This document shows, piece by piece, positions 27,934 to 52,694 of a stretch of 64,000 bases of DNA. Within the stretch, counting starts at the first letter, position 1. Each line of letters opens with the position of its first letter. The notes beneath the pieces were generated by a model. The model made no database searches and was not told where the DNA came from. It saw only the letters and a list, made by a program, of their open reading frames with translations. The translations under genes and the position numbers were made by a program. The DNA is from Tabrizicola sp. (GTDB lineage: Bacteria > Pseudomonadota > Alphaproteobacteria > Rhodobacterales > Rhodobacteraceae), in contig NZ_JAEULP010000016.1 in assembly GCF_016792905.1 (NCBI RefSeq), positions 25,142-89,141 of the forward strand, read 5' to 3'.

Positions 27934-27951
27934 ATGGTCGTGTACGACCAT
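27934..27951. promoter_or_regulatory. Palindromic ACGACCAT operator upstream of the Sel1-pqqABCDE operon
   Basis: ATGGTCGT-GT-ACGACCAT is a perfect inverted repeat with 8-base arms and a 2-base spacer. It lies 62 bases before the Sel1-protein start and 101 bases before the divergent SGNH gene. The same half-site occurs at the other promoters of the alcohol-oxidation island. Confidence 0.6.
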
Positions 27952-28012
27952 GGCGGATTTGGTCGCGGCCACCACCTCACCTACACTCCATCCAAAGCAA
28001 AGCGAGAGCCCG

Positions 28013-28552
28013 ATGCGAGCGATCCTTTTTCTGTCATTGTCCGTCCTGCCAGCCCTCGCCGAACCGGTGGAAGAGGTGGGAACCCTCAACCCCGAAGAGA
28101 TGACCATCGCCCGCATCCTGGACGATGTCGGCCGGGGTGAAACCAGCATGATGAATTGTGCGGCCGGCTACGGGATGACCAAGAAAGGCGACCACGACCG
28201 CGCGCGCGTTGTCTTCGAAGCCTGCGCCGCCGATGGCTGGGTCGGGGCGATGACCTGGATGGCCCAGCTGGATGACAACGGCCTTGGCACCCCGGACGAG
28301 AATCCGGAACGCGCCGCCGGTTGGGACCGGACTGCGGCAGAAGCGGGCGATCCGGTGGGAATGTTCAACTACGGGCTCGACTTGATGCGGGGTCGTGGCG
28401 TGAAAGCGGACGAAACCGCGGGCCGCGCCCTTGTGGACCGGGCCGCTGCCGCGGGTCTTCCGGTGGCCCGGCGCCTGCAGGCGGCGAGCTATGATCTCGA
28501 CGAGGTCACGCCCGATGCCGACAACTGGAAATACGAGAAGCGGCTCTACTGA
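28013..28552 (+). CDS. Secreted Sel1-repeat protein
   Basis: A 179-residue protein with a signal peptide (MRAILFLSLSVLPALAEP) and Sel1/TPR-like repeats: GDHDRARVVFEACAADGWVGAMTWMAQLDDNGLGTPDENPERAAGWDRTAAEAGDPVGMFNYGLDLMRGRGV and a following copy. Such repeats bind proteins. It is the first gene downstream of the palindromic operator and is followed after 76 bases by pqqA, so it is probably part of the pqq transcription unit. Its role in PQQ production or in the quinoprotein system is unknown. Confidence 0.75.
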   Translation: MRAILFLSLSVLPALAEPVEEVGTLNPEEMTIARILDDVGRGETSMMNCAAGYGMTKKGDHDRARVVFEACAADGWVGAMTWMAQLDDNGLGTPDENPERAAGWDRTAAEAGDPVGMFNYGLDLMRGRGVKADETAGRALVDRAAAAGLPVARRLQAASYDLDEVTPDADNWKYEKRLY

Positions 28553-28628
28553 CCCCCCTCCGAAGGTCGCATAGGCCGGGGGAAGGATTCGTGGCTTACT
28601 GATGGCATCTGATGGAGGAGGAACCCCG

Positions 28629-28724
28629 ATGCGCTGGACGAAACCGAAGGCCGTGGAAGTGCGCTGCGGCATGGAAATCAACATGTACGGCCCCGCCGAG
28701 GATGACGGGCGCACGGTCATCTGA
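28629..28724 (+). CDS. pqqA: PQQ precursor peptide PqqA
   Basis: A 31-codon gene directly before pqqB. Its product MRWTKPKAVEVRCGMEINMY has the invariant Glu-x-x-x-Tyr (Glu16 and Tyr20), the two residues that PqqE crosslinks and that become PQQ. A GGAGGAGG ribosome site lies just upstream. Eleven residues, GPAEDDGRTVI, follow the Tyr, so the tail is somewhat longer than in the common 23-24 residue peptides. The assignment is secure from motif and position. Confidence 0.93.
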   Translation: MRWTKPKAVEVRCGMEINMYGPAEDDGRTVI

Positions 28725-28733
28725 CCTGACGCC

Positions 28734-31720: not shown

Positions 31721-31722
31721 TG

Positions 31723-32744: not shown

Positions 32745-32832
32745 AGGCCCCGTTCGCTTGACGCATGTCAAACCTCTTCCGGGCCAGCGAGGCGCAATTT
32801 GGCGGCGTTTTCAATCGCCAAGGAGAACCCTC

Positions 32833-33240
32833 ATGCATCGCATCGCCAACCGCTCTGTCATTCTGGCCCTGTCGCTTCTGACCCTGACCGCACTGCAGAC
32901 ACTTGCCGACGACGCCGGCTCCTTCGACCAGATCAAGGTCGGGGCCGGCAAGGCGCTGTTCGAGGCGGAGTGCCGCCGCTGTCACGCCACCGATGCCAGT
33001 GACCCGAGTTACGGGCCGCTGCTGGAGGGTGTGGTCGGCCGCGAGGCTGGCACGTTCGCGGGCTATCCCTATTCCGAGGCGCTCAAGGCAGCCGGGTTCG
33101 TCTGGACCGAAGGTGCGCTCAAGGCCTGGATGGAGGACAATGACGGCTTCGTTCCCGGCACCAAGATGCGCCATGTCGGGATCGAGGATGCGACCGTGCA
33201 GGACTTCATCCTGGCCTACCTCCAGTCGATCTCGGGGTGA
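32833..33240 (+). CDS. Class I c-type cytochrome of the XoxF region
   Basis: A 135-residue periplasmic cytochrome with a signal peptide (ILALSLLTLTALQTLA) and one heme site, CRRCH, in AECRRCHATDASDPSYGPLL. The axial Met is in VPGTKMRHVG, and the layout resembles the c550/c2 group. The ATG behind AAGGAGAA is used; an upstream start would remove the signal peptide. Position directly upstream of xoxF makes it a candidate electron acceptor of XoxF or a partner of it, although the usual name xoxG is not certain here. Confidence 0.82.
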   Translation: MHRIANRSVILALSLLTLTALQTLADDAGSFDQIKVGAGKALFEAECRRCHATDASDPSYGPLLEGVVGREAGTFAGYPYSEALKAAGFVWTEGALKAWMEDNDGFVPGTKMRHVGIEDATVQDFILAYLQSISG

Positions 33241-33250
33241 GGCGGGGCTT

Positions 33251-33258
33251 ACGACCAT
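33251..33258. promoter_or_regulatory. ACGACCAT site upstream of xoxF
   Basis: TTACGACCATTGGCC stands 12 bases after the cytochrome c stop and 108 bases before the xoxF start. It carries the same 8-base core as the sites at 27.9, 32.7 and 43.6 kb and is followed by the small palindrome TTGGCCAA. Confidence 0.55.
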
Positions 33259-33365
33259 TGGCCAATACCCGCCCGGCCGGATCGGTCGCAAAGTGACTAT
33301 GGACAGGTGCCCGGGGGAGGGACCGGCGCGCCGTCCTGTCGCGAAAACCCGAGGGAGGGATCCTG

Positions 33366-35129
33366 ATGAACCGTTTTGTCGCTGCCGTTTCGGCGGCCCT
33401 GATGCTTGCTGCCCCGGCTTACGCGGGGATCACCGAAGAAGACCTGGCGGGGGACAGCGCCTCGACCGGGGACGTCCTGACCAACGGGATGGGGCGCGAC
33501 CTGCAACGGTTCAGCCCGCTGACGCTGATCAACAAGGACAACGTCGGAAAGATGGTTCCGGTCTGGGCCTTTTCGCTGGGCGGTGAGAAGCAGCGCGGGC
33601 AGGAAACGCAGCCCCTGGTGCATGACGGGATCATGTACATCACCGGGTCGTACAGCCGGTTGTACGCCATCGACGTCCATACCGGGAAGGAGGTCTGGCA
33701 GTTCGACGCCCGCCTGCCCGAGGGGATCCTTCCCTGCTGCGACGTGATCAACCGGGGCGCGGCGATCTATGGCGACAACATCTATTTCGGCACGCTGGAT
33801 GCCCGGATCGTCGCGCTGAACCTGAAGACCGGCGACGTTGTCTGGAACAAGAAGATCGCGGAGTACAAGGAAGGCTACAGCTATACCGCGGCGCCGCTGA
33901 TCGTGAACGGCCTTGTCATCACCGGCAATTCGGGTGGCGAGTTCGGCATCGTCGGCGAAGTGCAGGCGCGGAACGCCGAGACGGGCGAGCTGGTCTGGAC
34001 CCGGCCGACCATCGAAGGCCACATGGGCACCTTGAACGGCAAGGAATCGACGATGACCGGGACGCTGAATGCGTCCTGGCCCGGCGATCTGTGGAAAACC
34101 GGCGGCGGGGCGACCTGGCTGGGCGGGTCCTATGACATCGAGACCAACACGATCGTCTTCGGCGCGGGCAACCCGGCGCCCTGGAACAGCTGGCTGCGCA
34201 ACGCGGGCGACAAGAACGACGGGACCGGTGACAACCTCTATGCCGCCTCGCGCCTGGGGCTGGACCCGGCGACCGGCGAGATCAAGTGGCACTACCAGAC
34301 GACCCCCCGCGAAGGCTGGGACTATGACGGGGTGAACGAGGTCGTCGCCTTCACCGACAAGGACGGGAACAAGAAGTTCGGCACCGCCGACCGCAACGGG
34401 TTCTTCTACGTCCTGAACCGCGAGGACGGGAAGTTCCTGAACGCCTGGCCCTTCGTGAAGGACATCACCTGGGCCAAGGGCATCGATGAGAACGGTCGCC
34501 CGATCTACAACGAGGAGAACCGTCCGGGGAACCCCGCCGGTGCGGCGGATGGCGCGAAGGGCGAGGTGGTCTTTGCCTCGCCGTCCTTCCTGGGCGGCAA
34601 GAACTGGATGCCGATGGCCTACAGCCAGCACACCGGACTTTTCTATGTGCCCTCGAACGAATGGGGCATGGACATCTGGAACGAGCCGATCACCTACAAG
34701 AAGGGCGCGGCCTATCTGGGCGCGGGCTTCACCATCAAGCCGAACTACGAGGACCATATCGGCAGCCTCAAGGCGATCGACCCGGCAACGGGCGAGTGGA
34801 AGTGGGAATACAAGAACGAGGCCCCGCTTTGGGGGGGCGTGATGACCACGGCGGGGGGACTGGTGTTCTTTGGCACGCCCGAGGGCGAGTTCAAGGCGCT
34901 GGATGACGAGACGGGGAAGGAGCTGTTCAGCTTCCAGACCGGGTCGGGGATCGTGGGCCAGCCCGTCACCTGGGACGAGAACGGCGAGCAGTATGTCGCG
35001 GTGGTGTCGGGCTGGGGCGGGGCAGTCCCGCTCTGGGGTGGCGAGGTTGCGAACAAGGTCAACTACCTGAATCAGGGCGGCATGGTCTGGGTGTTCAAGC
35101 TGCCGAAGGAACTGGCGATGGCGAACTGA
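33366..35129 (+). CDS. xoxF: Lanthanide-type PQQ-dependent alcohol dehydrogenase XoxF
   Basis: A 587-residue periplasmic quinoprotein (signal peptide to about residue 20). The eight-bladed propeller holds the adjacent cysteines Cys124-Cys125 in [10 protein letters not shown], and metal ligands Glu192 in GGEFG, Asn269 in GNPAPWN and Asp319 in EGWDYDG. The additional Asp321, two residues after the catalytic Asp, is the mark that separates lanthanide enzymes (XoxF and relatives) from the calcium MxaF. XoxF-type enzymes oxidise methanol and other primary alcohols to aldehydes, or formaldehyde further, donating electrons to cytochrome c. No mxaF or mxaI is present. The clade cannot be fixed by eye; [18 protein letters not shown] is an insert that might point to an unusual clade. 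Confidence 0.9.
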
Positions 35130-35160
35130 CCCCCTCTGGTCAGGCCATCCGTCAAGGCCG

Positions 35161-35198: not shown

Positions 35199-35273
35199 CC
35201 CATAGGACTTTTGGCCTGTATCGGGCGGGGGCGGCGCGCGATACTCTTGGCCAAGACCCAACCCGGAAGGCGC

Positions 35274-35972
35274 ATGATGATGATGGTTCCCGCAAGCGAC
35301 CCCCGGCCCCTGCATTCGGCGCTGATCGTCGATGACCATCCGCTGTTCTGCGACGCCCTGTCGATGACGCTGAAGTCGGTCGCCGGGATCGAGGAGATCG
35401 AGACGGCGGATAGGCTGGAGACGGCGATTCACCGGGTCGACCTGAACCCGGCGCCGGATGCGATCGTGCTGGACCTGAACCTGCCGGACGTGAACGGCAT
35501 CGACGGGCTGATCCGGTTGCGGCAGGCGGCGGGGGAGGTGCCGGTGCTGGTGGTGTCCTCGCTGGCCGACAACCGGGTGATCGGGGCCTGCATGGCGGCG
35601 GGGGCGGCGGGCTTCGTGCCAAAGCATTCCCGGCGCGAGGTGTTCCGGGCGGCCTTCGACGCGCTGCGGGAGGGCAAGCGCTATCTGCCCGAGGGCTATG
35701 AGCCCCTGCCCGAGGGCAAGATGAAGGGAACCGCGCGAGAAGAGGCGATCGGTCGGCTGGGGCTTCTGACCCGGCAGCAGGCGAAGATATTGCAGCTGAT
35801 CTGCGAGGGCCTGTTGAACAAGCAGATCGCCTATGAGCTGTCGATTGCCGAGACCACGGTGAAGGCGCATGTCACGGCAATCATGCGCAAGCTTGGGGTG
35901 CAAAGCCGGACCCAGGCGGTGCTGATCGCGCGCGAGACGAACTTCACCTCGCTGATGCCAGAGGATGGCTGA
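35274..35972 (+). CDS. LuxR/NarL-family response regulator
   Basis: A 232-residue two-domain regulator. The receiver starts SALIVDDHPLFCDALSMTL and has the phosphoacceptor Asp67 in VLDLNLPDVNG, Ser in VVSSLAD and Lys in FVPKHSRRE. The DNA-binding domain is GLLTRQQAKILQLICEGLLNKQIAYELSIAETTVKAHVTAIMRKLGV, a NarL-type helix-turn-helix. Four consecutive ATG codons follow GGAAGG; the second or third has the better spacing. FlhR of Paracoccus and ErbR/AgmR-type regulators of Pseudomonas are known relatives that control quinoprotein alcohol oxidation, so this is the natural candidate for binding ACGACCAT. Confidence 0.88.
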   Translation: MMMMVPASDPRPLHSALIVDDHPLFCDALSMTLKSVAGIEEIETADRLETAIHRVDLNPAPDAIVLDLNLPDVNGIDGLIRLRQAAGEVPVLVVSSLADNRVIGACMAAGAAGFVPKHSRREVFRAAFDALREGKRYLPEGYEPLPEGKMKGTAREEAIGRLGLLTRQQAKILQLICEGLLNKQIAYELSIAETTVKAHVTAIMRKLGVQSRTQAVLIARETNFTSLMPEDG

Positions 35973-36032: not shown

Positions 36033-37208
36033 ATGATCGCCGCAGATGACACGGCCCCTGCCGCGGCGGGGGCATTGCCCGATGGCCTGTCCGTCATGCC
36101 GCGCGCCCATGCCGAGGCACGCGATCCCGAGGCTTTTGCAAAGCTGGTGAGGGGCCTTGGACCGGGGCCCTTTGTGGCAGTGATCCTGTTCATCTCGCCT
36201 CAGGCCGACCGCGCTGTGCTGGCGTCAGGGCTGTCGGCCGCGTTTCCCGGCGTCCCGGTGATCGGCTGCACCACGGCAGGGGAAATCTCGCCGGAGGGCT
36301 ATTCGGAGGGAGAGATCGTCGCGGTCGCCCTGCCCCGCGCCAGTTTCGCGGTGGACTGCCTGGGCGTCGACCTTGGCGCACTGGACCAGCAAGAGCTGAT
36401 CGGGCGGCTGATCCGGGCGCGGGCCGGGCTGGCGCGACGGCATCCCGACTGGGAGGACGAATTCGCCTTCGTCCTGGTCGACGGGCTGTCGATCCGCGAG
36501 GACGAGCTGACCGCTGCGCTGGGGCCGGGGCTGGGTCCGGTGCCGCTGTTCGGCGGCTCGGCCGGGGACGGCACGCGGTTTGCCGAGACCTTCGTCTTGC
36601 AGGACGGGCAGTTCCGCCAGGGCTGGGCAGTGCTGATGCTGGTGCGCACCGCCTGCAAGGTGAAGGTGTTCAGCCTGAACCACCTGACGCCCACCAACCG
36701 CCGCATGGTCGTCACCGGGGCCGACCCCGCCCGCAGGGTGGTGCACCAGATCAATGCGGAACCGGCGGCGCAGGAATACGCCCGCCTTCTGGGCAAGGAT
36801 CCGGCGCAGCTGACCACCTTCACCTTTGCGGCGCATCCGGTTGTCGTCCGCATCGGCGGCAGCCACCATGTCCGGGCGATCCAGCAGATGGCGCCAAACG
36901 GGGACTTGGTGTTCTTCTCGGCCATTGACGAGGGGCTGGTGCTGACACTGGCGGAGCCGCAGGATATGGCGGTGCATCTGGATTCGGCGCTGAACGCGCT
37001 GTCGGAAGCGGGAAAGCCAGCGGCGATCCTGGCCTGCGACTGCATCCTGCGGCGGATCGAGGCGATGGAGAACCAGCGGTTCGGGGCGGTGTCCAGCCTG
37101 TTGAAAAGCCACGGCGTCGTGGGCTTTTCCACATACGGCGAACAGCTCAACTCCATGCATGTGAACCAGACGATGACCGGGGTGGCAATCTACCCCCCGA
37201 AAGCCTGA
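36033..37208 (+). CDS. FIST-domain sensory protein
   Basis: A 391-residue soluble FIST protein. The N-terminal half has VAVILFISPQADRAVLASGLSAAFPGVPVIGCTTAGEISPEGYSEGEIVAVALP and LFGGSAGDGTRF; the C-terminal half has NGDLVFFSAIDEGLVLTLAEPQDM and AAILACDCILRRIEAMENQRFGAVSSLLKSHGVVGFSTYGEQLNSMHVNQTMTGVAI, both family marks. FIST domains are thought to sense small ligands and feed signalling proteins. The histidine kinase begins 2 bases after its stop, so it most likely supplies input to it. Confidence 0.88.
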   Translation: MIAADDTAPAAAGALPDGLSVMPRAHAEARDPEAFAKLVRGLGPGPFVAVILFISPQADRAVLASGLSAAFPGVPVIGCTTAGEISPEGYSEGEIVAVALPRASFAVDCLGVDLGALDQQELIGRLIRARAGLARRHPDWEDEFAFVLVDGLSIREDELTAALGPGLGPVPLFGGSAGDGTRFAETFVLQDGQFRQGWAVLMLVRTACKVKVFSLNHLTPTNRRMVVTGADPARRVVHQINAEPAAQEYARLLGKDPAQLTTFTFAAHPVVVRIGGSHHVRAIQQMAPNGDLVFFSAIDEGLVLTLAEPQDMAVHLDSALNALSEAGKPAAILACDCILRRIEAMENQRFGAVSSLLKSHGVVGFSTYGEQLNSMHVNQTMTGVAIYPPKA

Positions 37209-37209
37209 C

Positions 37210-42420: not shown

Positions 42421-43586
42421 GGGGCCCCCTTGAAGGCGGTGCAGGCGGATTCGGGTTCGTCGAGGCCGAGGGTGTCCATCTCGTTCCGCTGGTGCAGGAA
42501 GCCTTCGACCGGGGCCAGGGTCACAAGCGCGCGGGAGTTCACCACGGCAATGGGCTGGCGAAGCTGGCCATTCCAGGCACGGAACGACAGGCCGCGGCCC
42601 TTGAAGCCGTCCATCTGGAAATCCGGGTTGAGGAGGAACGCGCGGAGCGTGGCCGGGTCGCTGGAGCCGGTGCGGGTCACGGCCTCGCCGATGGCGCGGA
42701 TGGCAGCCCAGGCGGCGTAGTCCAGGCCGCGCATCGGGCGGAGGGCGTGGTCCTCGAAACGGTTCTGAAGCTGGACCGCGCCCCAGCTTTCGATGACCGG
42801 GGCCCAGGCCGTGGGGACCATGCCGTCGGACCCTGCCACGGGGCGGGGGAGCCAGGCGTTGTGTTCGATGTAGCGGCCGAAGTCGTCGGTTTCGTCAGCG
42901 ACAAGGATGACGTCATGGTCGGGGAACCCCTCAGTGAAGCGGGGAATTTCGTCCATGGTGGACTCGCGCAGGTCGGTGTCGAAGGTCCAGTCCTTCTCGG
43001 CGGCGATGGTGATGCCGAACTTGGTGGCAGACCGCCGGAGGGCTTCGGCGAAGGCCTGGTCGGCGGGATGCGAGCCGGTGACCAGGACGGTCGTCTGCCA
43101 CTGCTTGCGCTGCAGGACCTGCATCAGGGCATCGGTGCGCGCGGCGTCTTCGGGGATCGTGTGGAGAAGGTTCGCCCGGCAGTCGCCAGAGCGGAGATTT
43201 TCCGCGCCGGAGGAGACGTTGAAGAGAAGCGCCCCTTGCGCCTCGGGCAGGTCGGCGACCGACAGGATCGTGGCGGGATCGGCGTCGATCAGGATCAGGC
43301 GGGAGGTCTTCAGCGCCTCGCGCGCGGCTGTGGTCAGCTCGCCACCCGGGGGGATGGAGGCGAGGGTCAGGCTGTAGCTGTGGCCAAGGAAGCTGCCGGT
43401 GGTTTGGGTGTCGGCAATGGCGATTTCAGCCCCGGCGATGCCAAGGTCTTCCGGCACGGGGTCGAGGTTCGAGAGGACCGGGGGGCGGTCGACCTCCAGC
43501 CGCAGGTAGGTGATCGCGACGGGCAGCTCGGCCCAGGCAGGCGCGGCTGTCGCAAGGATCGCGATGGTCAGGACGATGCGGAACAT
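42417..43586 (-). CDS. PQQ-associated ABC transporter substrate-binding protein (branched-chain-type)
   Basis: A 389-residue periplasmic binding protein. I start it at the ATG behind GGAGGG that yields the signal MFRIVLTIAILATAAPAWA; an 88-codon upstream extension is not protein-like. The body has two lobes of the Leu/Ile/Val-binding type (AALLFNVSSGAENLRSGDCRANLLHTIPEDAARTDALMQVLQRKQWQTTVLVTGSHPAD, then HDVILVADETDDFGRYIEHN). It is the first gene of the minus-strand unit with the beta-propeller, unknown protein and ABC exporter, and is divergent from the PedF-like gene. The ligand is not known. Confidence 0.85.
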   Translation of the reverse strand: MFRIVLTIAILATAAPAWAELPVAITYLRLEVDRPPVLSNLDPVPEDLGIAGAEIAIADTQTTGSFLGHSYSLTLASIPPGGELTTAAREALKTSRLILIDADPATILSVADLPEAQGALLFNVSSGAENLRSGDCRANLLHTIPEDAARTDALMQVLQRKQWQTTVLVTGSHPADQAFAEALRRSATKFGITIAAEKDWTFDTDLRESTMDEIPRFTEGFPDHDVILVADETDDFGRYIEHNAWLPRPVAGSDGMVPTAWAPVIESWGAVQLQNRFEDHALRPMRGLDYAAWAAIRAIGEAVTRTGSSDPATLRAFLLNPDFQMDGFKGRGLSFRAWNGQLRQPIAVVNSRALVTLAPVEGFLHQRNEMDTLGLDEPESACTAFKGAP

Positions 43587-43637
43587 GGAGCCCTCCCTCC
43601 AGGCCCAAGACTGCGACCGGGGGCAGCGATGGCCAAT

Positions 43638-43650
43638 ACGACCATGGTCG
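43638..43650. promoter_or_regulatory. ACGACCAT palindrome between the substrate-binding protein and PedF-like genes
   Basis: CGACCATGGTCG at 43639-43650 is a perfect palindrome, part of ATACGACCATGGTCGG. It lies 52 bases upstream of the minus-strand substrate-binding gene and 97 bases upstream of the PedF-like gene. A looser copy, TTGGTCGAAT, follows near 43679. The core equals the sites in front of pqq, xoxF and the first cytochrome. Confidence 0.6.
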
Positions 43651-43746
43651 GACGGCGCGGAGGGGCGGGTTGCACCTTGGTCGAATGGCGGGGGGCGGGG
43701 GTCAGGGTTTACCCCTTTGACCCAGACCTTGAGGGAGGACCCCCGA

Positions 43747-44430
43747 ATGATGCGCAAGACCCTGGCGGGCCCGGCCCTGCTTCTGTCCCTGGCCGTGACC
43801 GCGACGCTGGCCTTTGCCCACGGTGACGTGGCGCCGCAGCCGGTAAACACCGATGCCCTGCCCGAGGTGGGCGAGGAATGGCTGGTCGAGAACCCCTACC
43901 GCGCCGACAAGGTGGGCGACGAGGTCTGGTGGCAGGCCGTCATGATCGGCGACAGCGGGTTCAACCAGAACTGCGCGCGCTGCCATGGGCTTGGCGCGGT
44001 GTCGGGTGGCCTTGCCCCGGACCTGCGCTTCCTGGAGGCGGCGGAATACGGGGACGAGTGGTTCGCCGAGCGGTTCCAGCACGGCTACACCCAGGACGGC
44101 ACGACGAAGATGCCGGCCTTCGGGGAGATCCTGGGCCAGAAGGCGGGCTGGGCGATCCGGACCTATATCGAGACCCGGCCCGAGGACGGGGCGCTCGACG
44201 CCCACAAGGACCGGCTGGGGGCGATCCGCGACGAGCTGATGGCGGGGGGCGGCGACGATGCGGCGCTGAAGGCGGAGCTGATGGAGATCGCGGGTTCGGT
44301 GGTGACGGCCTCGGGCGCGCCGAAATCGGATTCGGCGGCGCTGCGGGCTGCGCTGGCGCTGGACGGGACGGAGGCGGCGAAGAAGCACGCGGCCGAGATG
44401 CTGACCATCGGGCTTTCGGCGGCGCATTGA
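43747..44430 (+). CDS. PedF-like cytochrome c-550 with a long C-terminal extension
   Basis: A 227-residue exported cytochrome (signal MMRKTLAGPALLLSLAVTATLAFA). One heme site is at about residue 76, CARCH in NQNCARCHGLGAVSGGLAPDL, with the axial Met in TKMPAFGEIL. The first about 140 residues match cytochrome c-550 PedF, the electron acceptor of quinoprotein ethanol dehydrogenases. About 85 further residues form an alanine- and acid-rich helical tail (KAELMEIAGSVVTASGAPKSDSAALRAALALDG), longer than I expect. The next gene starts 2 bases later. Confidence 0.82.
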   Translation: MMRKTLAGPALLLSLAVTATLAFAHGDVAPQPVNTDALPEVGEEWLVENPYRADKVGDEVWWQAVMIGDSGFNQNCARCHGLGAVSGGLAPDLRFLEAAEYGDEWFAERFQHGYTQDGTTKMPAFGEILGQKAGWAIRTYIETRPEDGALDAHKDRLGAIRDELMAGGGDDAALKAELMEIAGSVVTASGAPKSDSAALRAALALDGTEAAKKHAAEMLTIGLSAAH

Positions 44431-44431
44431 G

Positions 44432-45346
44432 ATGCTGCGGGCTGCGGTCCTGGCGGTGATGCTGCTGGCGGCGGGCATGGCGAATGCCCGCTGCGAAGGC
44501 CAGGCTCCGGGGGCAAAGCCGCAGAACACCCCGCGCGAGGATGTGGGCCAGACGCTGGACGAGATCGTCGAGCGCGGCTGGATCGAGATCGCTGTCTACG
44601 AGGACTTTCCGCCCTACAGCTGGGAAGAGGGCGCTACGCCGAAAGGGGTGGACGTCGAGGTTGGCAAGATCATTGCCGAAGGACTGGGGGTCGAACCCCG
44701 GTTCCGTTTCGTCCAGTCGGGCGAGACGCTGGAGGCGGACCTTCTGAACTATGTCTGGAAGGGCGCGGCGGTCGGCGGGCATGTGTCGAACCTGATGATG
44801 CGGGTGCCCTACAACAGCGATTTCACCTGCCGGGTGGAGCAGGCCGTGTTCACCGGGCAATACGCGGGCGAGAAGGTGGGCATCGCCTACCGGATCGAAG
44901 CCTACCCCGACGCGGTGCAGGTGGCGAATGCGGACGGGCGGCATCCGGATGCGCCGGTGCCGTCGTTCTTTGTCTATGACCCTGTCGGGGTCGAAAATGA
45001 TTCGATTTCCGATTTCTACCTGACCTCGGCCTTCGGCGCCTCGGCCAAGATCACGCGCTACAAGACGGTAGCGGCGGCGATGGCGGGATTGAAGGCGGGG
45101 GAGGTGATGGCGGTGATGGGACCCCTGTCGCAGCTTGAGGTCGGCGCGGGCGAGGGCGTGGCGGTTCATGCGCCGCTTCTGCCGGGTTTTGAGCTGTCGC
45201 GCTGGACGCTGGGGGTGGCCGTGCACCAAAGCCACCGCGACCTTGGCTATGCGGTGGACGACGCCATTGCGGCGGCCCTGGCGGATGGCCGTATCGCGGA
45301 AATCTACGCGGAGTACGGACTGGAGTTCACCCCGCCCGAGCGTTGA
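44432..45346 (+). CDS. xoxJ: XoxJ-like periplasmic substrate-binding protein
   Basis: A 304-residue quinoprotein-associated solute-binding protein with a signal peptide (MLRAAVLAVMLLAAGMANA). Typical sequence is LDEIVERGWIEIAVYEDFPPYSWEEGATPKGVDVEVGKIIAEGLGV and AEIYAEYGLEF near the end, the two-lobed family 3 solute-binder pattern. XoxJ/MxaJ proteins are needed for active methanol dehydrogenase, perhaps in maturation of the enzyme. It is the second gene of the plus-strand pair with the PedF-like cytochrome. The xoxJ name is by family and context. Confidence 0.82.
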   Translation: MLRAAVLAVMLLAAGMANARCEGQAPGAKPQNTPREDVGQTLDEIVERGWIEIAVYEDFPPYSWEEGATPKGVDVEVGKIIAEGLGVEPRFRFVQSGETLEADLLNYVWKGAAVGGHVSNLMMRVPYNSDFTCRVEQAVFTGQYAGEKVGIAYRIEAYPDAVQVANADGRHPDAPVPSFFVYDPVGVENDSISDFYLTSAFGASAKITRYKTVAAAMAGLKAGEVMAVMGPLSQLEVGAGEGVAVHAPLLPGFELSRWTLGVAVHQSHRDLGYAVDDAIAAALADGRIAEIYAEYGLEFTPPER

Positions 45347-45376
45347 ACAATACGACTTAGGAATCATAGCCGCCCG

Positions 45377-45421: not shown

Positions 45422-45946
45422 ATGAAGCTCAGTGACACCCGCGACATCAAGGCCACCCCCGGCGAGGTCTGGACCGCGATCCTGAACCCCGAGGTGCTCA
45501 AGGAATGCATTCCGGGTTGCGAGAGCCTGAGCGGGTCGGTCGCCGAAGGATACGAGGCCGTGGTCAAGCAGAAGGTCGGGCCGGTGTCGGCGACCTTCAC
45601 CGGACTGGTGCAGCTTTCGGACATCGTCGAGGGCAAGTCGCTGAAGATTTCCGGCGAGGGCAAGGGCGGCGTCGCGGGCTTTGCCAAGGGCGGGGCCGAC
45701 GTGTCCTTCGAACCGATCGAGGGCGGCACCCGGCTGACCTATGTGGCCGAGGCCAGTGTCGGCGGCAAGATCGCCCAGCTGGGCAGCCGGATCATCGACA
45801 GTTTTGCCAAGAAACTCGCCGACGAATTCTTCACCCGGTTCCAGGAGGCGGTGGAGGAGCCGGAGCCTGCAGAAGTGGCCGGAGAAGAAGGTGCCGGGCC
45901 GGAGGAACAGAAGAAAGGTTGGTTCAAGCGACTGCTCGGCGGCTGA
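45422..45946 (+). CDS. coxG: CoxG-like SRPBCC protein
   Basis: A 174-residue protein of the CO dehydrogenase subunit G family. It begins MKLSDTRDIKATPGEVWTAILNPEVLKECIPGCESLSGSVAEGYEAVVKQKVGPVSATFTG, and the helix-grip fold continues through GTRLTYVAEASVGGKIAQLGSRIIDSFAKKLADEFFTRF. CoxG proteins are thought to anchor the molybdenum hydroxylase to the membrane. First gene of the cox set, directly after the quinoprotein genes. Confidence 0.85.
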   Translation: MKLSDTRDIKATPGEVWTAILNPEVLKECIPGCESLSGSVAEGYEAVVKQKVGPVSATFTGLVQLSDIVEGKSLKISGEGKGGVAGFAKGGADVSFEPIEGGTRLTYVAEASVGGKIAQLGSRIIDSFAKKLADEFFTRFQEAVEEPEPAEVAGEEGAGPEEQKKGWFKRLLGG

Positions 45947-45991
45947 ACGGGCCGCAGGGAAGTACCTAGGAATACCCAGGGAGGAGCAAGA

Positions 45992-46477
<486 letters not shown>

Positions 46478-46486
46478 GGGGGCGAG

Positions 46487-48865
46487 ATGCCGAAGGATCA
46501 CGGGATTGGCGCGCCGATGAAGCGCCGCGAGGATGTCCGCTTCCTGACCGGGCGCGGAGTTTATACGGACGATCTGGCCCTGCACGGGCAGGCGGCGGCG
46601 GTCTTTGTCCGCTCGACCGTCGCGCATGGGCGGATCAAGTCGATCAATCCGACCAAGGCGGCGGCGATGCCGGGCGTGCTGGCGATCTTCACCGGCGAGG
46701 ATTTCAAGGACGTTGGCGGCAACCCGGCAGGCTGGCTGATCAACAGCCGCGACGGCACGCCGATGCGGGAACCGAAGCGCCCGGTCTTGGCGCATGGCAA
46801 GGTGCGGCATGTGGGCGATGCCTATGCCGCCGTGATCGCGGAAACGCTGTCGCAGGCCAAGGATGCGGCGGAACAGCTGGCCGATGACAGCGTGATCGAG
46901 GAGCTTCCGGCCATCGTCGACATGAAGGCGGCGGTGGCGGATGCAACGAACCGCGTGCATGACGAGATCCCGGACAACCTGTGCTTCGACTGGGGCTGGA
47001 TCGAGGACAACCGCGCCGCTGTTGACGCAGCGATGAAGGCGGCGCCGCATGTCGTCACCCTCAATCTGGTGAACAACCGGTTGGTGCCGAACGCGATGGA
47101 GCCCCGGGCTTCGATTGGCGAGTACAACCCGGGAACGGGCGACTACAAGCTGACGACGACCAGCCAGAACCCGCATCTGACACGGCTTCTGGTGGCGGCC
47201 TTCGTGCTGGGCATCCCGGAGAACAAGCTGACGGTCGTGGCCCCGGATGTGGGCGGCGGCTTCGGGTCGAAGATCTATCATTATGGCGAGGAAGCGCTGG
47301 TCCTGGCGGCGGCGAAGAAGCTGGGCCGCCCGGTGCGCTGGACGGCGGAACGCAGCGAGTCTTTCCTCACCGACGCGCATGGCCGCGACCATGTGACGAA
47401 GATCGAGCTGGGCTGCACCAAAGACGGGCAAATCCTTGCGATCCGCACCGAGACGCTGGCGAACGTGGGGGCCTATCTGTCGAACTTCTCGACCGCGACG
47501 CCGACCTTCCTGCACGGCACGCTGATGGCCGGGCCGTACAAGGTGCCGCATGTCTATGTGAACGTGAAAACCGTTTTCACCAACACCGCCCCGGTCGATG
47601 CCTATCGCGGTGCGGGACGGCCCGAGGCGACCTTCAGCCTGGAGCGGGTGATCGACAAGATGTGCCGCGAGCTGAACCTTGACCCGTTCGAGGTGCGGCG
47701 GAAGAACCTGCTGACCCCGGACCAGTTCCCCTATACCACGCCGGTTGGCCTTGTGTATGACACCGGCAACTATCAGGCGACGCTGGACCGCGCGATGGCG
47801 ATGGCCGATGTGGCCGGGTTCGACAAGCGCGCGGCTGCTTCCAAGGCGCGCGGCAAGCTGCGCGGCATGGGGCTTTCCACCTGGATCGAGGCTTGCGGCA
47901 TTGCGCCGTCGCATCTGGTGGGCATCCTGGGGTCGCGCGTCGGGCTTTATGATGCGGCGACGGTGCGGGTGAACGCGACCGGGAACCTGAGCGTGATGGT
48001 CGGCGCCCACAGCCACGGTCAGGGGCACGAGACGGTGTTTGCGCAGATCGTGGCCGAGAAGCTGGGGGTGCCCGAATCTTCGGTGGAAATCGTGCATGGC
48101 GACACCTCGAAAATCCCGTTCGGGATGGGGTCCTATGGCTCGCGGTCGCTGGCGGTCTGCGGGGTGGCGGTGACCAAGGCCATCGACAAGATCGTCGCCA
48201 AGGGCAAGAAGATCGCGGCGCATATGCTGGAGGCGTCGGAGGGTGACATCACCTTCGAGGACGGCAAGTTCAGCGTGGCGGGGACCGACAAGGCCAAGAC
48301 CTTCGGCGAGATCGCCTTCAGCGCCTATGTCCCGCACAACTACCCCTTGGAGACGCTGGAACCGGGGCTGGAGGAGACTGCCTTCTACGACCCGGCCAAC
48401 TTCACCTATCCCGCAGGCGCCTATATCTGCGAGGTCGAGGTCGACGAAGGGACCGGCAAGGTCGACGTGGTGGCGTTCCACTGTGCCGACGACTTCGGCA
48501 ACGTGATGAACCCGATGGTGGTCGAGGGCCAGGTGCATGGCGGGGTGGGCCAGGGGATCGGCCAGGCCCTGTGCGAGTTCACGGCCTATGACGAGAACGG
48601 CCAGCTTCTGACCGGGTCCTACATGGACTATCCGATGCCCCGGGCCGAGGATGTGCCGTTCTACAACGTCGATTACAGCTGCCAGACGCCCTGCACGCAC
48701 AACCCGCTGGGGGTGAAGGGCTGCGGCGAGGCTGGGGCCATCGGGTCACCCCCGGCGGTGGTCAACGCGGTGATCGACGCGCTGCATCGCGGGGGGCACG
48801 CCCATGTGACGCATATCGACATGCCGGTCTCGCCGTCGCGGGTCTGGCAGGCTGTGAACGGCTGA
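46487..48865 (+). CDS. Molybdenum hydroxylase large subunit, form II CoxL-type
   Basis: A 792-residue large subunit. The active-site loop is AYRGAGR (residues 372-378), the form II signature; true CO dehydrogenases have AYxCSFR with a Mo-Cu site cysteine. GGGFGSK marks a Mo-cofactor segment, and the catalytic Glu is in [12 protein letters not shown] near residue 748. Form II enzymes have uncertain substrates; an aldehyde or N-heterocycle is plausible. The neighbouring PQQ alcohol genes make an aldehyde substrate attractive, but this is inference. coxD, coxE and coxF helper genes are not seen here. Confidence 0.9.
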
Positions 48866-48878
48866 GGGGAGGACGATC

Positions 48879-49667
48879 ATGCACAACTTTGATTTCGCGA
48901 AACCCTCGACGATTGCCGATGCGGCCAAGGCGTTGGCGGCGGACGGGGCGCAGGCCCTGTCGGGCGGGCAGACGTTGATCCCGACGATGAAGCAGCGGCT
49001 TGCCGCCCCGGCCACGCTGGTCAGCCTGACCGGCATCGCCGAGATGCAGGGAGTCTGTGTCGGCGATGGCGGGCTGCATATCGGGGCCGCAACGCCCCAT
49101 GCGGTCGTGGCGAAGGAGGCCGCGAAACACTACCCGGCGCTGGCGGACCTGGCGGGGGGCATCGGCGACCCGGCGGTGCGGTCGCGGGGGACGATTGGTG
49201 GCAGCATTGCCAACAACGATCCGGCGGCGTGCTACCCTTCGGCGGTTCTGGCGTCCGGCGCGACGGTGGTGACCAACAAGCGCAAGATCGCGGCGGATGA
49301 CTATTTCCAGGGGCTGTTTTCCACGGCGCTGGAGGAGGGGGAGTTCGTGACGAGCGTGGTCTTCCCGATCCCGCAGAAGGCGGCCTATGTGAAGTTCAAC
49401 CAGCCCGCCAGCCGCTTTGCCCTGACCGGGGTCTTCGTCGCGAAGTTCGCGAACGGCGTGCGGGTCGGCGTGACCGGCGCGGGCAACGACGGCGTCTTTC
49501 GCTGGGCCGAAGCGGAGCGGGCGCTGTCGGCGGACTTCTCGGCCTCGGCTTTGTCGGGGCTGAAGGTTGATCCTGCGGGGATGAACGCGGACCTGCATGG
49601 CTCGGCCGCCTACCGGGCGAATCTGGTCAAGGTGCTGACGGGTCGCGCGGTGATGGCTGCGGGCTGA
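48879..49667 (+). CDS. Molybdenum hydroxylase FAD-binding medium subunit, CoxM-type
   Basis: A 262-residue FAD subunit. It has LSGGQTLIPTMKQRLAAPATLVSLTGI and the second FAD loop IGDPAVRSRGTIGGSIANNDPAACYPSAVLA, followed by a typical C-terminal domain (YVKFNQPASRFALTGVFVAKF). It completes coxG-S-L-M and is followed by a bidirectional terminator. Confidence 0.92.
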   Translation: MHNFDFAKPSTIADAAKALAADGAQALSGGQTLIPTMKQRLAAPATLVSLTGIAEMQGVCVGDGGLHIGAATPHAVVAKEAAKHYPALADLAGGIGDPAVRSRGTIGGSIANNDPAACYPSAVLASGATVVTNKRKIAADDYFQGLFSTALEEGEFVTSVVFPIPQKAAYVKFNQPASRFALTGVFVAKFANGVRVGVTGAGNDGVFRWAEAERALSADFSASALSGLKVDPAGMNADLHGSAAYRANLVKVLTGRAVMAAG

Positions 49668-49684
49668 CCCGTTCAGCAATTGAG

Positions 49685-49720: not shown

Positions 49721-50572
49721 TCAGACGGTTTGCAGGTTGCCGTCGAAACCGACCAGCGTGACGCGGATCAGGCCCGGGTGGCGCAGGGCCGCGATCCGGT
49801 CGGCGGTCAGGAAGACCAGCGCCGTGGAGAGGGCGTCGGCGAGGGCAGCAGTCCTGGCCTCGACCGAAACGGTGGACCACAAGGGCGGCAGGCCCATTGG
49901 GTGGAGGATATGCGGCTGGCCGTTCACCAGCGTCGCCATGGGCGAGGAGGTGGCGATGGCGGTGCCGGTCAGGGTCCGGGTGGCAAGGTGGCCGTGGACC
50001 GGGTCTTGCAGGCCAAGGCGGAAGGGGCCGCCAAGCGCGGCAGTCTCGCCCATGTCGATCAGGGCGTGGTCGAAGCCGTGGGCGGCAAGGTGGGCTTTCA
50101 CCGCATCGGCGCCGAAGCCTTGGGCGATGCCGTTGAAGGTCAGCGCCATGCCGGGTCGCAGGGTGATGCCAATGACGCGCTGGACGTGCCGCCAGCCGAT
50201 TGGGGAGGTGTTGGCCCGACCCTCGGCTGCGGCCTGCCAGAGGGGCTGGACGGTCGGATCGAAGGCTCCGTCGGTCAGGCGATGGATGGCATCTGTCAGG
50301 TCGAGGACGGAGTTGAAGGCGAGCGATGGGGCGGCAAGCCGTCCGGTCGCGTTAAGGTCGGTCAGGGCCGAGGGGCGGTGGAGCGAGAAGTCGGCCTCGA
50401 TGGCCTCGATCAGGGTAGGAAGGCTGGCGAGGGCGGCCGCGGCGGCATGAATGGGGCCGCGGAGGCTGAGGGCGCAATCGGCACCGAAGGCCCGGCCCTG
50501 CCAGCGGGTTTCTGCTTCGGCAGGCGTCGCAAGGGCGGCGGCGGAGAGGGCGAGGAAGCGGCGGCGGTTCAT
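49721..50572 (-). CDS. apbE: FAD:protein FMN transferase, ApbE family
   Basis: A 283-residue exported ApbE with a twin-arginine-like leader (MNRRRFLALSAAALATPAEA). Family segments are GADCALSLRG, FNGIAQGFGADAVKAHL, ALIDMGETAALGG (metal/FAD site) and GTAIATSSPMATLVNG. ApbE attaches FMN to a Thr of flavoproteins such as NosR, NqrBC and RnfG. It overlaps the NosR-like gene by ATGA, so that protein is its obvious client. A frame extending 301 codons upstream is only a reading of the NosR-like gene in another frame. Confidence 0.88.
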   Translation of the reverse strand: MNRRRFLALSAAALATPAEAETRWQGRAFGADCALSLRGPIHAAAAALASLPTLIEAIEADFSLHRPSALTDLNATGRLAAPSLAFNSVLDLTDAIHRLTDGAFDPTVQPLWQAAAEGRANTSPIGWRHVQRVIGITLRPGMALTFNGIAQGFGADAVKAHLAAHGFDHALIDMGETAALGGPFRLGLQDPVHGHLATRTLTGTAIATSSPMATLVNGQPHILHPMGLPPLWSTVSVEARTAALADALSTALVFLTADRIAALRHPGLIRVTLVGFDGNLQTV

Positions 50573-52644
50573 GTCCGGGCCTCGCGCAGGACGGGCGGGG
50601 CCAATGGGCGGCCCCTGGCGGCAAGGACCAATGGCACGCAGGCGGCGGGCGAGTTGTGGATCGTCACGCAATCGAGGCACTGGAAGCATTCGGAGTACTG
50701 GATCTGGCCGCTGGCCTTGATCGCCCCGTACTTGCAGCGCACCCGGCAAAGCTGGCAGGGCGATCCGCATTCCCGGCGCCGGGCGATCCAGTCGCGGCCC
50801 CGGATCACCCCGCCGATGGCCATGAGTGCGCCCAAGGGGCAGACCCAGCGGCAGAAGCCCTTGAAGGTGAAAAGGCCAAGGACCAGCCAGAGCGCGGCAT
50901 AGGCGACGTAAGGCCAGTCGCGCAGGAAGACCGTCGTGATGGCCGTCTTGAACGGCTCGATTTCGGCGGCGGTGTCGAGGTGGGTCGGGGAAAACACGGC
51001 GACGCAGATCAGGGCGCCGAGGAGGAAGTATTTCAGGCTCTTGAAGCGGGCATCCCAGCGGGCCGGTGGCTCCCATTCCGGAAGGCGGAAGAAGCGGCCT
51101 GCGTGGTGGGCGAATTCCTGGAGCGCTCCGAACGGGCAGAGCCAGCCGCAGAAGAGCCCCCTGCCCCAGAGCACGAAGCCGAGGATGGTGACGGCCCAGA
51201 TCAGGAGCGAAAACGGGTCGTAGAGGAGGAAGGCGAGCGAGCCATCGTCTAGCGCGGTGCGCAGGGTGGCGAGGGGAGTGACGATGGAAAGCTGGCCCTG
51301 CCCCCAGAAGCCGATGAAGCCGGTGACGAAGGCGAGGGCCGCGAGCCGGATCGGCGTGCAGAACGGGTGATCGGACAGACGGTTGATGCCGGGGCCAAGG
51401 GCAGCCAGAAGCAGGGCGAGGACGCAAGCCAGCAGCAGCAGGTCGGCCTGCCGGTTCAGGATCGCCTCGCGCCACGGCGCCAATTTTTCCGGCGGGGCCT
51501 CGCGCAGGAAGAAACGTTCGGGCGTCGCGAGTGTCAGGCGGAAATGGGCGCTGCCGACCTGCGGCTGGAACTGGCCGTGCGCGCGCAGCGCGGTGGCGGA
51601 CAGCTCCCAGTCGGCGGCGGGATCGAAGCCAAGACGACGGTCGGTGCGCAGGATCATCGCCGTGCCCTGCGGGACCCCGGGCAGGGTTTCGAACAGGAGA
51701 TCGGCATCGCGGAGCGCCAACGGCAGGCCGCCTTGCGTGGCGGACAGGAGGTCGGGTTCGGTGTTGCGGACAAAATCCGGCGAGACGAGGCCATGGCGGG
51801 CGGTGTCGATCACCAGGATCGGTTCGTCCTGCGGCGAGACGGTCAGGAAGCGGTTGAGGTCGGACAGGCTTTCCGGGGTCAGGACCGCGCGGGCAATGGA
51901 AGCCGGGCCAAGGTCGACGGCCCAGAGATCAAGGTAAAGGCCCTGCGGGTCGGCCTGCGCCTCGGGGTCGTCATGGGTCCAGAGCGTCCCGGCAAAGGCG
52001 GCATCTGCCTCGGCATTGGTGACGCGGAGGTTGCGGGCGATGCCTTGGGTGACGAGGTCGTCCCAGTTGAGGGCTTCGTCCACGGCAGGGTCGGGCCGGG
52101 CGGGTGGCGCGGACTGGATGCCCTGCATCCGTTCCCGCGCCACGGCCAGCGTCGCAGCCAGGATCGATTCATGCGCGATGCGGACCGAGGCGGTCGCCTT
52201 CGTCACCCCGTCGAGGTAGACCAGATCGGTGCCCGAGCCTTCGCCGTAGGGGTTGCCGACGACGAGGGGTTCGTTGATCGAATGCCCCCGGTACTGTTCG
52301 AGAAACTTCAGGAACGGCGCCTCGCCCAGACCCGAAACGAAGATTGGCTCGTTGTGATCCAGGAGGCGCACGTCGATGAAGGTGCCCTGCAGGTCGAGCA
52401 ACACCAGCATGTTGATCGGCCCGCCCGAAAAGCCGGGCAAGGGGGCAAGCGGGCCGGTCTCGAACACATAGCCCGCCTCGGCCCCGCCGGAGTTCAGAAG
52501 GCTGTAGACCCCCTTGTCGTCCAGCGCCTCGCCCAGCGCGTAGGGTGGAAGGATCAGGGGCGCGATGCGGTCACGCGGGCTGGGGTCGGCAGCCGCAACC
52601 GCAACCGTCAGGCAGAGCCACAGCAGGGCAAGGACCACGCGCAT
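50569..52644 (-). CDS. NosR/NirI-like membrane flavo-iron-sulfur protein
   Basis: A 691-residue protein in the NosR layout. A signal peptide (MRVVLALLWLCLTVAVAAA) leads into a periplasmic FMN-binding domain, with the probable attachment site DGVTKATAS (the usual SGAT is changed to TKAT). A long periplasmic stretch then runs to about residue 400, and the membrane part has CGWLCPFGALQEFAHH and CRWVCPLGAL motifs. Two C-terminal [4Fe-4S]-type cysteine groups follow, CGSPCQLCRVRC and CFQCLDC. NosR feeds electrons to N2O reductase, but no nos or nir gene is in the window. Its neighbours are PQQ and cox genes, so it may link those to the quinone pool. Confidence 0.85.
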   Translation of the reverse strand: MRVVLALLWLCLTVAVAAADPSPRDRIAPLILPPYALGEALDDKGVYSLLNSGGAEAGYVFETGPLAPLPGFSGGPINMLVLLDLQGTFIDVRLLDHNEPIFVSGLGEAPFLKFLEQYRGHSINEPLVVGNPYGEGSGTDLVYLDGVTKATASVRIAHESILAATLAVARERMQGIQSAPPARPDPAVDEALNWDDLVTQGIARNLRVTNAEADAAFAGTLWTHDDPEAQADPQGLYLDLWAVDLGPASIARAVLTPESLSDLNRFLTVSPQDEPILVIDTARHGLVSPDFVRNTEPDLLSATQGGLPLALRDADLLFETLPGVPQGTAMILRTDRRLGFDPAADWELSATALRAHGQFQPQVGSAHFRLTLATPERFFLREAPPEKLAPWREAILNRQADLLLLACVLALLLAALGPGINRLSDHPFCTPIRLAALAFVTGFIGFWGQGQLSIVTPLATLRTALDDGSLAFLLYDPFSLLIWAVTILGFVLWGRGLFCGWLCPFGALQEFAHHAGRFFRLPEWEPPARWDARFKSLKYFLLGALICVAVFSPTHLDTAAEIEPFKTAITTVFLRDWPYVAYAALWLVLGLFTFKGFCRWVCPLGALMAIGGVIRGRDWIARRRECGSPCQLCRVRCKYGAIKASGQIQYSECFQCLDCVTIHNSPAACVPLVLAARGRPLAPPVLREART

Positions 52645-52680
52645 GCGTCAAGGATAGGCGCGTGACGGCCCCGCGCGTAT

Positions 52681-52694
52681 CCGACCAAAGTCGG
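52681..52694. promoter_or_regulatory. CCGAC-CAAA-GTCGG inverted repeat upstream of the NosR-like gene
   Basis: A 5-base-arm inverted repeat with the core CGACCAA lies 37 bases upstream of the NosR-like start (minus strand) and just after the carbonic anhydrase stop. It resembles the ACGACCAT sites but is not identical. It could instead be a small terminator of the carbonic anhydrase gene, though no T tract follows. Confidence 0.35.

What the first reader, a model, noticed from the sequence alone, without database searches (positions are those of the whole stretch)
27934..52694. A shared ACGACCAT motif marks the promoter regions of the whole quinoprotein island
Seen directly: the core ACGACCAT occurs in ATGGTCGT-GT-ACGACCAT before the Sel1-pqqABCDE operon, twice 23 bases apart (32711, 32734) before the first cytochrome c, once before xoxF (33251), and as CGACCATGGTCG (43639) between the substrate-binding protein and PedF-like genes. 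A related CGACCAA inverted repeat (52681) stands before the NosR-like gene. Each lies in an intergenic region of the same pathway. Inference: these are the sites of the LuxR-type response regulator encoded at 35.3 kb. I am not aware of a published binding site of this form for this regulator family.
Basis: partly seen in the sequence, partly recalled or inferred. Interest (0 to 1): 0.8.

Follow-up and report, generated by a model that had tools for sequence, protein, structure and literature searches.

The report
Shared control box of alcohol-oxidation genes
A short DNA sequence sits in front of most gene groups of a bacterial alcohol-burning pathway, is kept in the same place in related bacteria, and is most likely the docking site of a regulator encoded in the middle of the cluster, although that binding has not been tested here.

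Summary
TACGACCAT occurs 15 times in the 3.79 Mb genome: five in promoters within 16 kb of this island, ten in coding frames. In xoxF promoters it extends to TACGACCAWTGTGCAATW with an AATAAT -10 at fixed spacing. In 149 family genomes the 18-bp pattern has 18 matches (reversed control 0): 15 directly before xoxF, one contig-end copy from the same genome as one of these, one before the ABC binding-protein gene, one before pqqAB. All 16 genomes with a match encode the response regulator. De novo motif discovery on 110 promoters outside the window recovered the box from random seeds; its seven best hits in the held-out window are island promoters. I add sites before the regulator (35203), the ABC operon (43685) and coxG (45351). 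The regulator-FIST-hybrid kinase trio resembles FlhR/AfdR systems. Best reading: operators of this NarL-type regulator, controlling quinoprotein alcohol oxidation plus a form-II coxGSLM operon. Against: no binding data, no box before GSH-formaldehyde dehydrogenase, and only partial support for regulator-box co-variation.

The parts
27943..27958 (+). Box before sel1-pqq: TACGACC-AT-GGCGGAT, 70 bp before the preferred sel1 ATG at 28013; TACACT at 27982-27987, the canonical -10 offset
   Evidence: (11.6 bits)
27927..27942 (-). Second, oppositely oriented box at the same promoter: CACGACC-AT-TTTCCCA
   Evidence: 12.0 bits
32712..32727 (+). First of two tandem left half-sites before the cytochrome c gene
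   Evidence: 12.3 bits
32735..32750 (+). Second tandem half-site, 98 bp before the cytochrome c ATG; right half poor, not listed at >=7 bits by the 16-bp model
   Evidence: (half-site 17.2 bits)
33250..33267 (+). xoxF box TACGACCATTGGCCAATA, 116 bp before the xoxF ATG
   Evidence: 33.6 bits with a PWM built without the window
35203..35218 (+).
   Evidence: (15.3 bits)
43637..43652 (.). Palindromic box TACGACC-AT-GGTCGGA in the SBP/pedF divergent region
   Evidence: 17.5 / 16.2 bits
43670..43685 (-).
   Evidence: (18.4 bits)
45351..45366 (+).
   Evidence: (11.3 bits)
52680..52695 (.). Weak box/inverted repeat TCCGACC-AA-AGTCGGC, 51 bp before the NosR-like ATG; on the minus strand TATCCT stands at the canonical -10 offset
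   Evidence: (8.9 bits)
35274..35972 (+). Response regulator (receiver + GerE/LuxR HTH), proposed binder
36033..37208 (+). FIST_N/FIST_C protein
37210..39411 (+). PAS hybrid histidine kinase
32833..33240 (+). Cytochrome c, target gene
33366..35129 (+).
28013..28552 (+). Sel1-repeat protein ahead of the pqq genes, target operon
41470..43586 (-). PQQ-associated beta-propeller (TIGR03866) and ABC substrate-binding protein (TIGR03863), target operon
43747..45346 (+). pedF-like cytochrome c and substrate-binding protein, target operon
45422..49667 (+). coxG-coxS-coxL-coxM; CoxL carries the form-II signature AYRGAGR; target operon
50569..52644 (-). NosR-like membrane ferredoxin protein (NF046105 match below its cut-off), probable target

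Best explanation
The motif is the operator of the NarL/LuxR-type response regulator encoded at 35.3 kb, which is co-encoded with a FIST protein and a hybrid histidine kinase (an FlhR/AfdR-like system). A phosphorylated dimer binds a 16-bp box (TACGACC-WW-kGtnCaA, strong left and weaker right heptamer) centred about 44 bp upstream of transcription start, and activates promoters that have a -10 element but a poor -35. One regulator thus switches on pqq biosynthesis, xoxF and its cytochrome c, the ABC/beta-propeller operon, pedF, the coxGSLM operon and its own gene. Shown here: the box, its promoter position, its conservation, its restriction to these promoters in this genome, and its co-occurrence with the regulator. 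Partly shown: co-variation of box and regulator subfamily. Inferred: physical binding, phosphorylation dependence, activation rather than repression, and the signal.
For: Genome-wide, promoter-type copies of TACGACCAT were seen only in this island: 5 of 15, the other 10 coding. xoxF promoters of 18 other loci share CnTACGACCAWkGTnCAATWYC with an AATAAT -10 at offset 39-44. The 18-bp pattern has 18 matches in 16 of 149 family genomes, reversed control 0: 15 directly before xoxF, one contig-end copy in G133 with the same flanks as its xoxF copy, 1 before SBP, 1 before pqqAB. All 16 genomes are among the 61 with an RR relative at E <= 1e-30 (hypergeometric 1.7e-7), as are all 31 genomes with xoxF. 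De novo EM on 110 promoters outside the window converged on the box from random seeds (log-likelihood 588.8 against 47.8 for shuffled input). With the tested class kept out of training the box was found in 18/18 xoxF, 17/18 SBP, 6/10 and 8/13 CoxG, 3/4 NosR-like, 3/5 cytc, 4/6 pqqB and 13/60 RR promoters, against 0.3-2.5% in shuffles. In an annotated Ruegeria plasmid the box precedes xoxF, SBP, pedF, RR, CoxG, sel1 and cytc. The box persists at xoxF where the RR gene lies about 0.77 Mb (G125) or 0.92 Mb (G104) away on the same contig. Three window sites (sel1-pqq, coxG, NosR-like) have TANNNT at offset 39-44, the place learned from other genomes' xoxF promoters. A Rhizobiales RR subfamily (HVSEIL in the three members aligned) has another box, WTGTACTWTYGGtCAA, before its RR and FIST genes.
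Against: No binding or expression data. Co-occurrence of RR and box is confounded by co-inheritance with xoxF, and 'RR-positive' includes relatives down to about 34% identity. No box precedes GSH-formaldehyde dehydrogenase in the 30 loci checked, although a reviewed relative (AfdR) activates that gene. Only 13 of 60 RR promoters and 6 of 10 CoxG promoters reach 11 bits when held out. Dyad symmetry is clear for SBP (0.60) and CoxG (0.50) but weak for xoxF (0.37 against 0.35 for the next axis) and not distinct for RR (0.36 against 0.39). In the window 29040 (inside pqqB) scores above 27943, and 5351 above 52680; several island sites are no stronger than the best hits in the reversed window. Co-variation has exceptions: seven Halomonas-type RR promoters lack the box (best 4.2 bits) though the two aligned regulators read HVTAIL; and of five outgroup xoxF regions only one (G316) matches the second box. 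At 7 of 10 window sites, xoxF included, there is no TANNNT at offset 39-44.
Confidence: 0.82

Rival explanations
1. The box is the operator of a different regulator of the same pathway (for example an AgmR/ExaE-type or lanthanide-responsive regulator encoded elsewhere), and the RR is merely a neighbour.
For: Pathways of this kind have several layered LuxR-type regulators in Pseudomonas (PMC12997753 passages). No binding data exist here. RR-box co-variation has exceptions.
Against: The box also marks coxG and some RR promoters in loci with the RR but no xoxF in the stretch fetched. A second RR subfamily has a different box of like layout. In this genome no second RR reaches E 1e-30 against the query.
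Confidence: 0.12
2. TACGACC...CAAT is a conserved basal promoter element (an alternative -35 or a sigma-factor site) rather than a regulator site.
For: It has a fixed spacing to the -10 in xoxF promoters.
Against: Promoter-type copies were seen in only one functional set of genes in the genome. Box-to-ATG distance, orientation and multiplicity vary between classes. SBP and CoxG copies show 7-2-7 dyad symmetry.
Confidence: 0.03
3. The motif is a repressor site; the RR or an RfdR-like paralogue represses the island.
For: R. sphaeroides has a system thought to repress, RfdRS (PMC4776306 passages). The same DNA could serve either role.
Against: A centre near -44, upstream of the -10, is a usual activator place, as for NarL at -44.5 in the ogt promoter (PMC7419079 passages). 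This genome holds only one such RR at E 1e-30.
Confidence: 0.12

Closest known systems
FlhR-orf2-FlhS of Paracoccus denitrificans; AfdR-AfdT-AfdS and RfdR-RfdT-RfdS of Rhodobacter sphaeroides
   Same: Response regulator and kinase genes with one gene between them; control of methanol/formaldehyde oxidation in the same order of bacteria (PMC4776306 and PMC8879981, passages)
   Different: Those reviews report control of GSH-formaldehyde dehydrogenase (and mxa/mau); here no box precedes that gene in 30 loci, and the set marked is xoxF, pqq, ped and coxGSLM. The passages read give no binding site. Orthology of the named proteins, and whether orf2/AfdT are FIST proteins, were not tested.
AgmR/PedR1/ErbR with PedS1 and PP_2663 (GfdT/NosP) of Pseudomonas
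   Same: LuxR-type activator beside a hybrid kinase and a GfdT/NosP gene; controls quinoprotein ADH, pedF and pqq genes (PMC12997753 passages; PMC13390443 passages). That NosP is a FIST protein is recalled.
   Different: Different class; no binding site is given in the passages read; sequences were not compared here.
NarL 7-2-7 operators of E. coli
   Same: Inverted heptamers with a 2-bp spacer, placed just upstream of or abutting the -35; one is centred at -44.5 (PMC7419079 passages)
   Different: Different heptamer sequence (the NarL consensus TACYYMT is recalled); here the right heptamer is degenerate in xoxF and RR promoters.

Membership tests
FlhR/AfdR-type two-component system | RR gene (receiver + LuxR HTH), one intervening gene, kinase gene in one block | tested here: met
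   the intervening gene here is FIST, its identity with orf2/AfdT not tested
FlhR/AfdR-type two-component system | Sequence orthology to the named FlhR or AfdR proteins | not testable with these tools
   The named sequences were not at hand; papers not held. Two Cereibacter species have an RR at 77% identity.
FlhR/AfdR-type two-component system | Controls GSH-formaldehyde dehydrogenase (adhI/flhA), so a box is expected upstream | tested here: not met
   30 loci, 25 of them over the TIGR02818 cut-off: no full box near the gene; one weak full-length hit at -1210 (6.7 bits) and four half-sites, the nearest at -304. Only one locus per genome was scanned, although several genomes hold two copies.
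NarL/FixJ-type 7-2-7 operator | Inverted heptamers with a 2-bp spacer | tested here: inconclusive
   Clear in SBP (0.60) and CoxG (0.50) sites, weak in xoxF (0.37) and not distinct in RR (0.36)
NarL/FixJ-type activator site | Position just upstream of -35/-10 at fixed spacing | tested here: met
   -10 AATAAT consensus at offset 39-44 in 18 aligned xoxF promoters, all from outside the window; TANNNT there at 3 of 10 window sites
NarL/FixJ-type activator site | Bound by the cognate phosphorylated regulator | not testable with these tools
   needs gel shift or DAP-seq
Form I CO dehydrogenase (target operon coxGSLM) | CoxL active-site motif of form I (AYRCSFR) | tested here: not met
   window CoxL has AYRGAGR, the form-II motif (motif definitions in PMC12996764 passages)

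The most novel reading that the evidence does not exclude
One FIST-linked two-component system commands a conserved 'alcohol-to-acid' regulon in which a form-II coxGSLM molybdenum hydroxylase, an enzyme type without an agreed substrate (recalled), is switched on by the same box as XoxF and PQQ synthesis. The form-II enzyme would then oxidise the aldehyde that the quinoprotein makes, not CO. The box would also be a portable marker to predict quinoprotein regulons, with RR-subfamily-specific variants (TACGACC against GTACT).
Probability: 0.35. Interest if true: 0.75.

Novelty: new member of a known kind. Interest (0 to 1): 0.55.

Why it matters
It gives a concrete, testable operator for a widespread alphaproteobacterial regulator family whose target site I could not find in print (searches; open-access library only). 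It turns 'genes that happen to be neighbours' into a predicted regulon covering PQQ synthesis, XoxF, cytochromes, an ABC/propeller system and a form-II coxGSLM operon. The last link is the surprising one: a shared switch with alcohol oxidation points to an aldehyde rather than CO as substrate.

Tried and rejected
Rejected: a chance run of 8-mers; a genome-wide basal element (the 18-bp pattern with up to 3 mismatches gives 32 matches against 52 for its reverse, so no excess beyond the island). A one-mismatch hit before an apbC/Mrp-like gene (L114) was judged probably chance; the gene name is by eye. GSH-formaldehyde dehydrogenase promoters were tried as targets and lack the box. A class-wide xoxF search was little use (5 of 190 genomes), but gave three outgroup genomes (five xoxF upstream regions) whose best box scores in the xoxF orientation do not stand out as TACGACC boxes. 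The upstream-of-HK control was positive in 13 of 59 loci; these regions lie at the end of the FIST gene, and I attribute them to conserved codons without testing it. The ten other operon-internal control genes gave 2 hits in 192 regions. G002, whose closest XoxF is only 58% identical, has no box. Four of 29 family xoxF promoters score below the highest of their own shuffles (G039, G120, G134, G109), though the best forward hit is at -100 to -132 in all 29; two of the 29 (G106, G006) duplicate training loci. Two of the four sites left unassigned were placed before pedF-like frames by eye (L058, L062); L055:1491 and L062:3476 stay unassigned. The xoxF count includes the loci the PWM was trained on. 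Training loci include L016, a close relative of the window (RR 92% identical). Group comparisons were not corrected for relatedness of the genomes. Gene starts for distance counts come from homology to window proteins, not from transcripts. Mechanical open frames run across several island sites; I take the homology- or signal-peptide-supported starts instead.
Full report
1. The observation. ACGACCAT is over-represented in the window (9 against 1.71 expected). The 9-mer TACGACCAT is sharper: 15 matches in the whole genome, five of them in 16 kb of this island. I placed each of the other ten against reading frames and judged all to lie in coding sequence (L003 settled). Promoter-type copies were therefore seen only in this island of this genome (92.9% complete).

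2. What the box really is. In the 18 usable xoxF-linked loci the xoxF upstream regions align on CnTACGACCAWkGTnCAATWYC, 95-131 bp before the ATG, all in one orientation, followed by an AATAAT consensus -10 at a fixed distance. The 18-bp pattern searched in 149 genomes of the family gave 18 matches in 16 genomes and none for its reverse. Fifteen lie 109-128 bp before xoxF. A sixteenth (L097) is at a contig end of G133 with the same flanking letters as that genome's xoxF copy (L112), so xoxF itself is not seen there. One lies before the ABC binding-protein gene and one before pqqAB.

3. Independent discovery. A motif model learned by expectation-maximisation on 110 promoters from loci other than the window (18 xoxF, 18 SBP, 10 CoxG, 60 RR, 4 NosR-like) converged on TACGACC-WW-kGtcCaA from random start words as well as from a consensus start, with log-likelihood 588.8 against 47.8 for shuffled sequences. 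In the held-out window its best hits are the xoxF (33250, 23.3 bits), SBP (43670-43685 minus, 18.4), pedF/SBP (43637, 17.5 and 16.2), regulator (35203, 15.3), cytochrome (32712, 12.3) and sel1-pqq (27927 minus, 12.0) promoters. Then come 29040 inside pqqB (11.7), 27943 (11.6), coxG 45351 (11.3), 5351 outside the island (11.1), 46648 inside coxL (9.0) and 52680 (8.9). The reversed window gives hits up to 14.9 bits, so sites below that rest on position and conservation, not on score. With the tested class kept out of training the box was found in 18/18 xoxF, 17/18 SBP, 6/10 and 8/13 CoxG, 3/4 NosR-like, 3/5 cytochrome c, 4/6 pqqB and 13/60 RR promoters. The rate in shuffles was 0.3-2.5%. Ten operon-internal genes were negative (0-1 hits each, 2 of 192 in all); HK gave 13 of 59, its upstream region being FIST coding sequence.

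4. A second set. Five regulator loci from plasmid records (5 of 148 records with a match) were scanned at 12 bits. There were 33 hits against 4 in reversed sequence. Some are the two strands of one place; 4 of the 33 are inside mapped genes, and 2 (L217, L221) have no mapped gene start near. Annotation of L217 and L221 is partial, and relatedness to the training loci was not checked. In Ruegeria sp. SCSIO 43209 boxes precede xoxF, SBP, pedF, RR, CoxG, sel1 and the cytochrome c gene. In Paracoccus marcusii the box lies between the rhodanese gene and pedF in a ped-like cluster, and boxes precede pedF-like frames in L058 and L062. Paracoccus therefore links the box to a second type of quinoprotein cluster.

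5. Who binds. The regulator has a receiver and a GerE/LuxR domain and is followed by a FIST protein and a hybrid kinase. FlhRS, AfdRS and RfdRS are reviewed as RR and kinase genes with one gene between (PMC4776306, passages), and a GfdT/NosP gene and hybrid kinase stand beside AgmR in Pseudomonas (PMC12997753, passages). Evidence that the RR is the binder: (a) all 16 box-bearing family genomes and all 31 xoxF genomes have an RR relative at E <= 1e-30, against 61 of 149 overall (hypergeometric 1.7e-7 and 2.4e-15), though co-inheritance confounds this; (b) the box remains at xoxF when the regulator gene is 0.92 Mb (G104) or 0.77 Mb (G125) away on the same contig; (c) in six Rhodobacter-type loci with RR and coxG but no xoxF in the stretch fetched, the box stands 67-69 bp before coxG (L018 and L021 are contigs under 6 kb, and L022 is rearranged); (d) a Rhizobiales subfamily of the regulator (HVSEIL in L077, L079 and L090, against HVTAIM in most aligned members of the first group) yields de novo a different box of like layout, WTGTACTWTYGGtCAA (log-likelihood 166.9 against 51.7 shuffled), and the outgroup genome G316, whose xoxF-adjacent regulator has HVSAVL, shows TCGTACTATTGGGCAA at its xoxF promoter. 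Point (d) is the weakest: the other four outgroup xoxF regions do not match that second box (at most 7.2 bits), the loci are mostly closely related Mesorhizobium, L046 in the first group reads HITAIL, and seven Halomonas-type RR promoters lack the first box (at most 4.2 bits) although the two regulators aligned there read HVTAIL.

6. Mechanism. Site calls made on the left heptamer only show a peak of inverted-repeat symmetry at a 2-bp spacer for SBP (0.60; other axes 0.09-0.32) and CoxG (0.50; others up to 0.37), little for xoxF (0.37 against 0.35) and none distinct for RR (0.36 against 0.39). With a -10 at offset 39-44 the box centre falls near -44. NarL 7-2-7 sites act just upstream of or abutting the -35, and one is centred at -44.5 (PMC7419079, passages). 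In the window TANNNT stands at offset 39-44 at three of ten sites: sel1-pqq (TACACT), coxG (TATGCT) and NosR-like (TATCCT); the regulator has GATACT two bases earlier; the others, xoxF included, do not. I read the box as a NarL-type activator operator whose right half may be poor. Transcription starts are inferred, not mapped.

7. What it does not mark. GSH-formaldehyde dehydrogenase upstream regions (30 loci, 25 over the family cut-off) have no full box near the gene. So the regulon here is not simply the published formaldehyde regulon, or that gene is controlled by another means in these genomes.

8. The unexpected member. CoxGSLM is marked by the box both in the window (45351) and in relatives. 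The large subunit has AYRGAGR, the form-II motif (PMC12996764, passages, which describes form II as often accessory rather than CO-oxidising). Since it shares a switch with alcohol oxidation, I suggest an aldehyde-type substrate; this is inference.

9. Literature. Searches for the site by name, by regulator and by sequence returned nothing relevant in their listings. The primary papers on FlhR and AfdR (Harms 2001, Hickman 2004, recalled) are not held, so an earlier report of the site cannot be excluded.

Noticed in passing
32758-32771: A perfect FNR/FnrL-like palindrome TTGACGCATGTCAA (pattern recalled) lies between the tandem boxes and the cytochrome c ATG. A similar site stands 55 and 67 bp before the orthologous gene in L028 and in the Ruegeria plasmid L219, but not in L036-L039.
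   Followed up: partly
46487-48865: CoxL with form-II motif AYRGAGR; best NCBIfam match is a glyceraldehyde dehydrogenase alpha subunit, below cut-off.
   Followed up: partly
L076-L095 (Rhizobiales members): A regulator subfamily linked to FIST/HK and coxSLM has its own box WTGTACTWTYGGtCAA before RR and FIST.
   Followed up: partly
L218:14122-14137: In Shinella sp. HZN7 a box lies 72 bp before a pseudoazurin gene just downstream of the kinase, a possible extra electron carrier in the regulon.
   Followed up: no
L219:14148-16132: The Ruegeria plasmid island carries a DUF779 protein and an aldehyde dehydrogenase next to the kinase.
   Followed up: no
36705-36712: ACGACCAT on the minus strand lies inside the FIST gene; regions upstream of HK (FIST 3' coding) gave 13 of 59 box-like hits in relatives, origin not tested.
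   Followed up: no
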